DNA of 64,000 nucleotides, from contig JAGRPB010000001.1 of NCBI GenBank assembly GCA_020439945.1, forward strand, positions 1 to 64,000, written 5' to 3'. The notes beneath the pieces are model-generated. The model saw nothing but the letters and a program-made list of their open reading frames with translations. It had not been told where the DNA came from and made no database searches. Positions 53,075 through 56,404 of this stretch are shown here, piece by piece. Positions within the stretch are counted from its first letter, which is position 1, and every line of letters starts with the position of its first letter. A program made the position numbers and the translations under genes. The DNA is from Verrucomicrobiia bacterium (GTDB lineage Bacteria > Verrucomicrobiota > Verrucomicrobiia > Verrucomicrobiales > DEV007).

Positions 53075-53656
53075 ATGGACTCCTCCTTCATTCTCATCCT
53101 GGCAATCGCGTTTGCCGTGTTGGCGCTGCCGCTTCTCTGGTTGATCGGCACCTACAACGGATTCGTCCGCTTGCGAAATCATTGCCGGGAATCGTGGTCG
53201 GACATCGATACCGAACTGAAACGTCGGCACGATCTCATCCCGAACCTCGTCGAGACGGTGAAAGGCTATGCCGCCCACGAGCGCGAGACGCTGGAGCGGG
53301 TCATCGCGGCCCGGGATCGTGCCGGCGCGCCGCACGACCGCGTCCGCGAACAGGCGGGCGACGAATCGGCCCTGGTCCGGGAGGTGGGTCACCTCATGGC
53401 GGTGGCGGAAGGGTATCCTCAGTTGAAGGCGGACCGGAATTTCCTCCAACTCCAGCACGAACTGGTCAACACCGAGGATCGCATCCAGGCGGCCCGGCGC
53501 TTCTACAACGCCAACGTCCGCGACCTCAACAACCGCATCGAGATGTTTCCCTCCAGCCTGGTGGCGGGCTCGATGAATCTGGAAACCTGGGACTATTTCG
53601 AGATCGCCGATCTCGCCGTTCGCGTGGCGCCGAAGGTGGATGTGTCGGGAGAGTGA
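53075..53656 (+). CDS. LemA family protein
   Basis: The 193-residue protein has an N-terminal membrane helix (about 5-22) and the family motifs YNGFVRLRNHCRESWSDIDT, LKRRHDLIPNLVETVKGYA and a C-terminal ARRFYNANVRDLNNRIEMFPS. LemA proteins are membrane-anchored coiled helical bundles of unknown role, sometimes linked to envelope maintenance. It is preceded by its usual DUF3137-like partner and followed 24 bases later by the FAD oxidoreductase. Confidence 0.95.
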   Translation: MDSSFILILAIAFAVLALPLLWLIGTYNGFVRLRNHCRESWSDIDTELKRRHDLIPNLVETVKGYAAHERETLERVIAARDRAGAPHDRVREQAGDESALVREVGHLMAVAEGYPQLKADRNFLQLQHELVNTEDRIQAARRFYNANVRDLNNRIEMFPSSLVAGSMNLETWDYFEIADLAVRVAPKVDVSGE

Positions 53657-53680: not shown

Positions 53681-54760
53681 ATGACAGTCGATACCCTCAT
53701 CGTCGGCCAGGGATTGGCCGGTTCGTTGCTGGCCTGGGAGCTGCTTGAACGCGGGCAACGCGTGCTGGTGGTGGATCGTGACGAGGCGTTGACCAGTTCC
53801 AAGGTGGCGGCCGGTATCGTGACACCGATCACCGGGAAACGGCTGGCGCCGACGTGGCGCGGTGACGAGTTCTGGCGTTATGCGACGGCGGCCTACCGGC
53901 GGGTCGAGACGAAGTGTGGGCAATGGCTGTTCCGCCCGGTGCCGATCGCGCGCCTCCTGGCCAGCGAGGACGAGGCGCGGCGCTGGGAAAAGAAAAAGGC
54001 GGAAGCGGAGTCGGAACGGGGCCCGGGTCGGCTGCCGGCGGGCGCGGTGCCGCTGGAGATTTCCGAGGCGGTGTTTCATGCCGAGCGCGGCGGATTCGAG
54101 ATGCCGGCGGCGGGCTGGCTGGACGTGCCGGCATTCCTGGAGGCGACGCGACTGCACCTGCTGGAGCGACTCGGCTACGCGATCGGCACGGTGAATGCCG
54201 ACGATATCGACGTGGTGGCCGGAGGCGTGCGTTGGAAGAACATCAAGGCGAGCCACGTGATTTTCTGTCAGGGCTGGGAGGGAAACCGGAACCGCTTTTT
54301 CGACTGGGTGCCGTTCCGCAGCGCCAAGGGACAGATTCTCGATCTCGAGTGCCCGGCGGCGATGACGGAGACGCGGATCGTGAACCGGGCCGGCTGGCTG
54401 TTGCCGCTGGGCGGGAGAAAATTCCGCGCCGGGGCCACCTACGAATGGGACTTCGCGGACGGGGAGGCCACGGAGACGACTCGGGAAGGCCGGGCGGAGG
54501 TGGAGAAGAAGCTGCGCGGAATGCTCAGGGTGCCGTTCGAGATCACCGGACAGCGCGCCGCGGTGCGTCCGGTGATTCGCGAGAGTCGGGCTCTCATCGG
54601 GCTGCATCCGGCCACAGAACTCGAAAACCGCGTCGGCTTTTTCAACGGCCTCGGGTCGAAGGGCGTGCTCAACGGACCGTTCTTCGCGGCCCAGCTGGCG
54701 GATCATCTCGTCAGGGGCACTCCCTTGGAACCGGAGGTGGATCTCCGAAAAAATCTGTGA
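53681..54760 (+). CDS. FAD-dependent oxidoreductase, MnmC(o)/DAO-like
   Basis: The 359-residue protein opens with the FAD-binding motif GQGLAGS (9-15) and a strand ending VVDRD. The following SSKVAAGIVTPITGKR segment and the C-terminal GFFNGLGSKGVLNGP are characteristic of a DAO-superfamily subgroup related to the oxidase domain of MnmC. In bacteria lacking fused MnmC, a separate oxidase of this kind (MnmL in Bacillus) removes the carboxymethyl group from cmnm5-uridine in tRNA. The next gene encodes the matching methyltransferase and its nearest starts abut or overlap this stop. I infer tRNA wobble-uridine modification rather than amino-acid oxidation. Confidence 0.8.
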   Translation: MTVDTLIVGQGLAGSLLAWELLERGQRVLVVDRDEALTSSKVAAGIVTPITGKRLAPTWRGDEFWRYATAAYRRVETKCGQWLFRPVPIARLLASEDEARRWEKKKAEAESERGPGRLPAGAVPLEISEAVFHAERGGFEMPAAGWLDVPAFLEATRLHLLERLGYAIGTVNADDIDVVAGGVRWKNIKASHVIFCQGWEGNRNRFFDWVPFRSAKGQILDLECPAAMTETRIVNRAGWLLPLGGRKFRAGATYEWDFADGEATETTREGRAEVEKKLRGMLRVPFEITGQRAAVRPVIRESRALIGLHPATELENRVGFFNGLGSKGVLNGPFFAAQLADHLVRGTPLEPEVDLRKNL

Positions 54761-54771
54761 CGGACAGCTCG

Positions 54772-55353
54772 ATGGAATCGCGATCCGGGAAACCAAGATT
54801 GCCGCGCGCCACGGAACTGGCGCATCGGTTCGTGACCGAATGTCTCGGCCCTGGAGATCGCGCCATCGACGCCACGGCCGGCAACGGTCACGACACGCTT
54901 TTCCTCGCCGAATTGGTGGGACCCGAGGGCAAGGTGGTGGCCTTCGACGTGCAGCCGGAAGCGATCGAGGCGACGCGCGCCCGGCTGGAGGCGGGGGGAG
55001 TCGCTGACCGGGTGCGTCTGGTGCGGGAGTGCCATTCCCGGCTGGCGGATTCAATCGAAGGCGAATGGAACGCCGTCATGTTCAACCTGGGCTACTTGCC
55101 GGGCGGGGACAAAGCCACGATCACCCGTCCGGAGACGACGCTGGCCGCGATGGAGGCGGCGCTGAAAGTGCTGGCTCCGCGCGGACGGATGATGGTGGTG
55201 GTTTACCCCGGCCATCCCGGCGGCGAGGTCGAAGCCGAAATGGTCGAGCGTTGGGCGGCTGAGCTGGATCAGGCGCGCTTCAGCGTGGCGAGTTATGGAT
55301 TCCTCAATCAGACCAATTCGCCGCCGAGGCTCGTGGTGATCGAAAAGCGGTGA
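54772..55353 (+). CDS. mnmM: tRNA (mnm5s2U) methyltransferase, MnmM/YtqB-like
   Basis: The 193-residue class I SAM methyltransferase has motif [11 protein letters not shown] (near 32-41), an acidic residue after strand 2 (AFDVQPEA) and the signature of the putative-rRNA-methylase family, [11 protein letters not shown] (near 103-113) then PETT. That signature marks YtqB/MnmM, the Bacillus enzyme that methylates nm5-uridine at tRNA wobble positions using SAM. An in-frame GTG at 54757 overlaps the upstream stop (GTGA) and is an alternative start. Adjacency to an MnmC(o)-like oxidase gives both final steps of mnm5 formation side by side. Confidence 0.85.
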
Positions 55354-55408: not shown

Positions 55409-56404
55409 ATGAAGATTCTCGTCACCGGCGGCGCCGGCTACATCGGCAGCATCACCACGGAAGTGCTCATCAAGAGTGGCTATGAGGTCGTGGTCCTGGA
55501 CAATCTCTTCCAGGGACATCGCGCCGCGGTGCATCCCGATGCCGCCTTTGTTGAGGCCGATCTCGCCGACAAACCGGCGGTCGAGGCGGTGTTCAGGGAA
55601 CATCGGCCGCAGGGCATCATGCACTTCGCGTCCCGCACCCTGGTCGGCGAGTCGATGGCGGAGCCTTTTCTCTATCTCGGCGAAAATGTCCGCAACGCCC
55701 TGAACCTGCTCGAACTGGCGGTGGAATACGGCACCGAACGCTTCATTCTCTCTTCGACCGCCAACCTTTTCGACGACCCGGAGAAAATGCCGATCGCCGA
55801 AACGGAACGGATCGTTCCCGGCAGTCCCTACGGCGAATCGAAATTCATCATCGAACGATTTCTCCACTGGCTCCAGGTCACGAAAGGCCTCCGCTACGCC
55901 TGTCTCCGCTATTTCAATGCCTCTGGCGCGACCGAGGAACGCGGCGAGGATCATTTTCCCGAGATGCACCTCATTCCGCTGGTGCTTCAGGTCGCGCTCG
56001 GGCAGCGGGAAAACATCCGCATCTTTGGAGACGACTATGACACGCCGGACGGCACCTGTGTCCGCGACTACATCCACATCGCCGACCTGGCCCGGGCACA
56101 CATCCTGGCGCTTGAGGCCCTCTCAGGGAAACCCTTTCTCCGTTACAATCTTGGCAACGGCAACGGTTTCAGCGTGAAAGAGGTCATCGAAACCGCCCGG
56201 AAAATCACCGGTCACGAGATTCCCGCCATCATCGATCCGCGTCGTCCCGGAGATCCCGCCACGCTGGTGGCCGACAGCACGCGGATCCGCGAGGACCTGG
56301 GCTGGGAGCCGACCTATCCGACTTTGGAATCGATTATCGAAAGCGCCTGGTCCTGGCACCAGCGCCATCCGCAGGGGTACGGCGATCGCGATTCGGATTC
56401 CTGA
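55409..56404 (+). CDS. galE: UDP-glucose 4-epimerase
   Basis: The ATG at 55409 starts a 331-residue extended SDR with GGAGYIG (7-13) for NAD binding and the catalytic Tyr141-x3-Lys145 (YGESK); the Ser/Thr of the triad lies in LSSTAN near 116. Family motifs YFNASGA and [11 protein letters not shown] are present. It interconverts UDP-glucose and UDP-galactose for envelope polysaccharide. It is convergent with the mini-pseudopilin pair. Confidence 0.95.

What the first reader, a model, noticed from the sequence alone, without database searches (positions are those of the whole stretch)
53681..55353. Side-by-side MnmC(o)-like oxidase and MnmM-like methyltransferase
The two reactions that turn cmnm5-uridine into mnm5-uridine are fused as MnmC in many proteobacteria and split in Gram-positives (MnmL and MnmM). 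Here an MnmC(o)-like FAD protein is followed by a methyltransferase with the YtqB/MnmM signature ([11 protein letters not shown]), which may even start at a GTGA overlap. This would give a two-gene split version in a Verrucomicrobiota genome, with direct operon evidence for the pairing.
Basis: partly seen in the sequence, partly recalled or inferred. Interest (0 to 1): 0.62.

Follow-up and report, generated by a model that had tools for sequence, protein, structure and literature searches.

The report
Oxidase-methylase pair for tRNA wobble uridine
Two neighbouring genes, one for a flavin oxidase and one for a methyltransferase, most likely carry out the last two steps of a tRNA wobble-base modification, and in several other bacteria the same two genes have merged into one, which makes the flavin oxidase a good candidate for a step still unassigned in these bacteria.

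Summary
The pair is real. P0002 (54757-55353) is MnmM by NCBI's curated model (229.8 bits, cut-off 135) and keeps the tested catalytic residues. P0001 (53681-54760) is a full-length DAO-fold FAD oxidase. It belongs to a distinct family: below the MnmC1 model's cut-off (73 against 174 bits), its own clade in trees, perhaps sister to MnmC(o). The functional link is strong. Among 194 Verrucomicrobiota genomes all 28 with MnmM carry the FAD family (6.1 expected); 25 of the 28 lack MnmL and none has MnmC. In Planctomycetota 8 of 8 FAD-family genomes have MnmM (12 of 199 have MnmM). In 80 fetched loci MnmM is adjacent in 42, fused into one polypeptide in 11, and 3.2 kb away in 1; the fused label needs at least 4 changes on the tree. 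Most likely the FAD protein turns cmnm5(s2)U34 into nm5(s2)U34 and MnmM methylates it: an MnmC-like module built from other parts. Enzyme activity is inferred. The MnmL paper (Jaroch 2024) was not held, so prior description cannot be excluded.

The parts
53681..54760 (+). FAD-dependent (DAO-fold) oxidase gene, proposed cmnm5(s2)U34 oxidase (P0001, 359 aa)
   Evidence: pLDDT 96.3; ThiO Z 35.8, MnmC Z 33.1
53705..53722 (+). Rossmann dinucleotide motif GQGLAG (residues 9-14), FAD binding
   Evidence: G9 and G11 align with E. coli MnmC G271 and G273
54566..54568 (+). Arg296, aligned with E. coli MnmC Arg567; proposed to hold the substrate carboxylate (inference)
   Evidence: 43 of 43 family rows, 7 of 7 MnmC, 5 of 5 ThiO rows
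54647..54664 (+). GLGSKG loop (residues 323-328), aligned with GSRG of MnmC(o), differs from GHF-type loops of ThiO
   Evidence: invariant or nearly so in A1 and A2, A2 loci being seeded by this motif
54757..54760 (+). GTGA: stop of the FAD gene overlapping a possible GTG start of mnmM (ATG alternative at 54772)
   Evidence: not conserved in L124 and L125
54757..55353 (+). mnmM gene, tRNA nm5(s2)U34 methyltransferase (P0002, 198 aa)
   Evidence: NF053511 229.8 bits, cut-off 135; YtqB structure 8h0s E 6e-42
55081..55113 (+). MnmM motif [11 protein letters not shown] with N110, Y113, K119 (B. subtilis N101, Y104, K110)
55204..55215 (+). MnmM motif YPGH with Y150 and H153 (B. subtilis Y141, H144)

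Best explanation
The two genes form a two-enzyme module for the last two steps of wobble-uridine hypermodification. MnmE and MnmG make cmnm5(s2)U34. The FAD protein then oxidises the C-alpha-N bond of the glycine-derived side chain, releasing (by hydrolysis of the imine) nm5(s2)U34, and MnmM methylates it with SAM to mnm5(s2)U34. It works like bifunctional MnmC but is built from a distinct DAO-type oxidase family plus MnmM, a methylase of another family; in some Planctomycetota and Verrucomicrobiota both are one polypeptide, oxidase first. Shown here: family identities, residue conservation, co-occurrence, adjacency, recurrent fusion. Inferred: substrate and reaction of the FAD protein, and action on tRNA in this organism.
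For: MnmM identity. Co-occurrence: 28 of 28 MnmM genomes among 194 Verrucomicrobiota carry the FAD family (42 of 194 carry it; 6.1 expected, Fisher p 1.1e-23, not corrected for kinship; 18 of 18 without the largest genus); 8 of 8 FAD genomes among 199 Planctomycetota have MnmM (12 of 199). Linkage: 7 of 28 Verrucomicrobiota MnmM genomes adjacent; of 80 fetched loci 42 adjacent, 11 fused, 1 at 3.2 kb; of the other 26, 19 genomes have MnmM elsewhere. Fused label: 5 changes on a 128-row tree, at least 4 forced. No competing source: 25 of 28 MnmM genomes lack MnmL, no MTase_30 and no MnmL in the own genome. Fold: full-length match to glycine oxidases and MnmC, whose chemistry on glycine-type C-N bonds fits. 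A separate ThiO over cut-off exists in 3 of 7 fusion genomes searched (G220, G221, G226).
Against: No activity data. P0001 misses the MnmC1 cut-off and a ThiO grouping is not rejected. FAD family without MnmM in 14 of 42 Verrucomicrobiota genomes; 6 of these have stand-alone MnmD, 3 only a TGT-MTase_30 fusion, 5 neither. Seven of 80 scanned genomes show FAD but no MnmM. Two Planctomycetota genomes have MnmM with neither FAD family nor MnmL (G298, G334). MnmE and MnmG were not found in the 1.70 Mb of 5.90 Mb of the own genome that I could read, which decides nothing. Two Gemmataceae fusions have eroded MnmM motifs.
Confidence: 0.82

Rival explanations
1. The FAD protein is a free amino-acid or glycine oxidase (ThiO-like) and its neighbourhood to mnmM is incidental.
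For: Best structural matches are glycine oxidases (Z 35.8 against 33.1 for MnmC); TIGR02352 matches P0001 weakly (59 bits); ThiO grouping not rejected.
Against: Far below the ThiO cut-off of 250.8 bits; own clade at 100/100; true ThiO coexists in several fusion genomes; incidental linkage does not explain fusion with at least 4 label changes and 28 of 28 co-occurrence.
Confidence: 0.06
2. The FAD protein acts on U34 of tRNA in the same pathway but on another step, for example a side product of MnmEG or recycling of an over-modified base, while nm5U comes from the ammonium branch of MnmEG.
For: MnmEG can make nm5U from ammonium without MnmC(o) (PMC3648344); two Planctomycetota genomes have MnmM with no detected oxidase.
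Against: DAO fold with the conserved Arg (P0001 R296) fits an N-substituted glycine; the FAD family also sits in 6 genomes with MnmD instead of MnmM, as an nm5U supplier would.
Confidence: 0.08
3. P0001 is simply a divergent orthologue of MnmC(o), that is, MnmC split with its methylase replaced by MnmM. (This differs from the best explanation in ancestry only, so the two confidences overlap.)
For: Branch joining the family to MnmC(o) with 88/93 support in one tree; in the other the DAO+ThiO clade is set apart from both at 96/89; shared GS[KR]G loop.
Against: Below the curated cut-off; separate clade; alternative not rejected.
Confidence: 0.3

Closest known systems
Bifunctional MnmC (MnmC1/MnmC2), E. 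coli
   Same: Same proposed two reactions; a DAO-fold oxidase plus a SAM methylase; aligned residues G271, G273, G287, S304, G518, R567, G578, G619 kept in P0001.
   Different: Two genes here, or fusions with oxidase first instead of last; methylase is MnmM (NF053511), not MTase_30; oxidase below the MnmC1 cut-off.
MnmM/YtqB (B. subtilis, S. aureus)
   Same: Same family, same catalytic residues.
   Different: Partner in Gram-positives is MnmL; here an FAD oxidase. The residue at the K11 position is His.
MnmL/YtqA (TIGR01212)
   Same: Would supply nm5(s2)U34 to MnmM.
   Different: Radical SAM protein, unrelated to the FAD protein and not found in this genome.
Glycine oxidase ThiO
   Same: Same fold, closest Z-scores, related chemistry.
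   Different: Below cut-off, different loop (GLGSKG against GHFR-type), different partner gene, and true ThiO present beside it in some genomes.

Membership tests
MnmM (NF053511) | Score over NCBI's curated cut-off, full length | tested here: met
   229.8 bits against 135, profile 3-183 of 183
MnmM (NF053511) | Residues essential in B. subtilis (K11, D34, N101, Y104, K110, Y141, H144) | tested here: met
   Six of seven identical (D46, N110, Y113, K119, Y150, H153); K11 position is H23, H in 88 of 112 distinct MnmM rows; the K11 alignment is by eye
MnmM (NF053511) | Methylation of nm5(s2)U34 in tRNA | not testable with these tools
   needs enzyme assay
MnmC(o)/MnmC1 (TIGR03197) | Score over curated cut-off | tested here: not met
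   73.4 bits against 174.2
MnmC(o)/MnmC1 (TIGR03197) | Conserved residues of the MnmC1 domain (PMC3648344 Table 2 and text) | tested here: met
   G271, G273, G287, S304, G518, R567, G578, G619 identical; R653 is K357
MnmC(o)/MnmC1 (TIGR03197) | Groups with MnmC(o) in a DAO tree | tested here: inconclusive
   joined at 88/93, ThiO alternative p-AU 0.37
Bifunctional MnmC | MTase_30 domain N-terminal to the oxidase in one protein | tested here: not met
   no PF05430 in the own genome; two genes here
MnmL/YtqA (TIGR01212) | Radical SAM domain | tested here: not met
   P0001 is PF01266 DAO with no Radical_SAM match; MnmL reference is Radical_SAM
ThiO glycine oxidase (TIGR02352) | Score over curated cut-off | tested here: not met
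   59 bits against 250.8
ThiO glycine oxidase (TIGR02352) | Oxidation of free glycine, thiamine gene context | not tested
   thi genes were not searched for; activity needs an assay

The most novel reading that the evidence does not exclude
A third, independently assembled enzyme system for cmnm5U34 to mnm5U34: a hitherto unassigned family of DAO-fold tRNA oxidases that pairs with MnmM (and in some genomes with MnmD), and that has fused with MnmM repeatedly to give a bifunctional MnmC analogue of reversed domain order. It would fill the missing MnmC(o) role in MnmM organisms that lack MnmL.
Probability: 0.6. Interest if true: 0.72.

Novelty: new variant of a known kind. Interest (0 to 1): 0.62.

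Why it matters
Cho et al. 2023 (PMC9976899, abstract and sections 15, 20, 21 and 22 read) state that the MnmC(o)-like enzyme of MnmM organisms was unknown and that they found no operon of the two activities in the genomes they compared. MnmL answered that for Gram-positives (recalled; NCBIfam name). In the 194 Verrucomicrobiota genomes surveyed, 25 of 28 MnmM genomes have no MnmL; this FAD family gives them a specific, testable candidate, with natural fusion proteins ready for a one-pot assay. It also shows modular swapping in one phylum: FAD+MnmM, FAD+MnmD, MnmL-MnmD fusions and MnmC, a clean case for studying how the same tRNA modification is rebuilt.

Tried and rejected
Rejected: P0001 as MnmL (radical SAM). 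P0001 as plain ThiO (cut-off, clade, separate ThiO). My own first reading of the ~690-aa MTase_30 ORFs in family f6 as MnmC: all 8 proved to be TGT-MTase_30 fusions; only G086/L072 is a true MnmC. Tree placement as proof of orthology: not decisive. The GTGA overlap as evidence: not conserved. P0001 against the plasmid collection: one weak match. Prediction that MnmM genomes without the FAD family hold MnmL: 2 of 4 Planctomycetota (G244, G285 yes; G298, G334 no). MnmE/MnmG in the own genome: not found in 1.70 of 5.90 Mb, inconclusive. Literature: searches gave no paper describing an FAD oxidase-MnmM pair or fusion; Jaroch et al. 2024 (PMC11025329) was not held, and I recall from its abstract that fusion proteins and alternate arrangements are mentioned, so it may describe this.

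Caveats on counts: the genome-contig scan was seeded by the motif [FLM][NS]G[LF]GSKG, so conservation of that motif in L124-L203 is by construction; it kept the best 80 of 419 relatives, ranked by likeness to P0001, so linkage counts lean to near kin. Fisher p values ignore kinship. In one search, rows under 280 residues and duplicates were dropped (154 hits to 128 rows). In tree 2 I dropped 17 rows of tree 1 and added 10. MAG labels of some loci (Bifidobacterium L189, Hyphomicrobium L150, Gammaproteobacteria L198) may be wrong.

Full report
What is there. Two same-strand genes sit at 53681-54760 and 54757-55353. The first encodes a 359-aa protein (P0001) with a DAO-type FAD oxidoreductase domain across its length. 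The second encodes a 198-aa protein (P0002) that passes NCBI's curated MnmM model (229.8 bits, cut-off 135) and whose nearest solved structures are YtqB/MnmM proteins (8h0s, E 6e-42). The genes overlap by GTGA if the GTG at 54757 is the start; an in-frame ATG follows at 54772, and relatives L124 and L125 do not keep the GTG.

MnmM. Cho et al. 2023 (PMC9976899; abstract and sections 15, 20, 21, 22 read) showed that K11, D34, N101, Y104, K110, Y141 and H144 of B. subtilis MnmM are needed. Six are identical in P0002; the K11 position is His.

The FAD protein. TIGR03197 (MnmC1) is its best NCBIfam match but at 73 bits, far under the 174 cut-off; ThiO is at 59 bits, cut-off 251. AlphaFold2 gave a confident model (mean pLDDT 96.3). 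Solved structures nearest to it are glycine oxidases (Z 35.8, rmsd 2.5, 337 aligned) and MnmC (Z 33.1, rmsd 3.0, 337 aligned), then sarcosine oxidases and relatives. Eight of nine conserved residues that I took from Kim and Almo's account of the MnmC1 domain (PMC3648344, passages and sections 9 and 17) are identical, including Arg567, here Arg296, present in 43 of 43 family rows. That Arg also aligns in ThiO, where it binds the substrate carboxylate (recalled). The loop GLGSKG aligns with GSRG of MnmC(o) and not with the GHFR-type loop of ThiO (noticed after the fact).

Trees. In two maximum-likelihood trees the family forms one clade at 100/100, apart from MnmC(o), ThiO and other DAO oxidases. 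Rooted on LhgD it joins MnmC(o) with 88/93 support; a grouping with ThiO is 5.4 log units worse and not rejected (p-AU 0.37). So it is a family of its own, possibly sister to MnmC(o).

Co-occurrence. The same 194 Verrucomicrobiota genomes were searched for the FAD family (42), MnmM (28), MTase_30 (55) and MnmL (50). All 28 MnmM genomes carry the FAD family, 6.1 expected. MnmM never meets MnmD or MnmC (0, 6.8 expected, TGT fusions set aside) and meets MnmL in 3 (7.2 expected). Of the 14 FAD genomes without MnmM, 6 have stand-alone MnmD, 3 only a TGT-MTase_30 fusion, and 5 no methylase found. Among 199 Planctomycetota genomes 12 have MnmM and 8 the FAD family, all 8 with MnmM; 6 are adjacent, 1 is fused, and in G251 the two lie about 131 kb apart. 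Of the 4 MnmM genomes without the FAD family, 2 have MnmL.

Linkage and fusion. A scan of public genomes kept 80 loci of 419 relatives. MnmM is adjacent on the same strand in 42, fused in frame to the C-terminus of the FAD protein in 11, and 3.2 kb away in 1; 19 of the remaining 26 genomes hold MnmM elsewhere, 7 do not. Of the 11 fusions I scanned 5 with NCBIfam: all 5 pass the MnmM cut-off, with MnmC1/ThiO-type matches in front. On a 128-row tree the fused label needs 5 changes, at least 4 forced by well-supported branches. A model of fusion L187 shows two folded domains and a loose linker at 346-358 (mean pLDDT 82.3). Neighbours beyond the pair change: lemA and galE of the window recur in 2 of 80 loci.

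Mechanism. Known chemistry: MnmEG makes cmnm5U34; an FAD oxidase (MnmC1) cleaves the C-alpha-N bond through an imine to give nm5U34; a methylase completes mnm5U34 (PMC3648344). MnmM does that last step in B. subtilis (PMC9976899). In this genome neither MTase_30 nor MnmL was found, so without the FAD protein MnmM would depend on the ammonium branch of MnmEG. The simplest reading is that the FAD protein is the cmnm5(s2)U34 oxidase. Its substrate is inferred, not shown.

Novelty. Cho et al. [quoted passage not shown] My paper searches turned up no description of this pair. Jaroch et al. 2024, the MnmL paper, was not held and may mention such fusions. I therefore call it a new variant of a known kind.

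Noticed in passing
L099, L100, L101, L102, L103, L104, L105, L106: Queuine tRNA-ribosyltransferase (TGT) fused to a Methyltransf_30 domain in one ~670-720 aa ORF, in eight Verrucomicrobiota genomes. Joins two wobble-position modification activities; function of the MTase part unknown.
   Followed up: partly
L073-L081, L084 and other places: MnmL (radical SAM) fused to MnmD-type MTase_30 in one ORF in 40 of 194 Verrucomicrobiota genomes (counted from the ORF lengths and places; one, L081, checked by profile): another bifunctional solution for the same two steps.
   Followed up: partly
L181:3998-5629, L183:3995-5617: Two Gemmataceae FAD-MnmM fusions have eroded MnmM catalytic motifs (e.g. FHFGPLPGGD), while the oxidase half keeps its motifs.
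   Followed up: no
genomes G298 and G334 (L258, L254): Planctomycetota genomes with MnmM but neither the FAD family nor MnmL: a further oxidase or the ammonium route may exist.
   Followed up: no
G088, G160, G169, G181, G091, G085 (L089, L041, L092, L090, L096, L097): Family f6 members of the FAD family lack MnmM; three of the six genomes have only a TGT-MTase_30 fusion as possible partner methylase.
   Followed up: partly
window 53075-53656 and 55409-56404: LemA family gene ends 24 bases before the FAD gene; an NAD-dependent epimerase (galE-like) follows mnmM, all on the + strand; this order is shared only by L124 and L125.
   Followed up: yes
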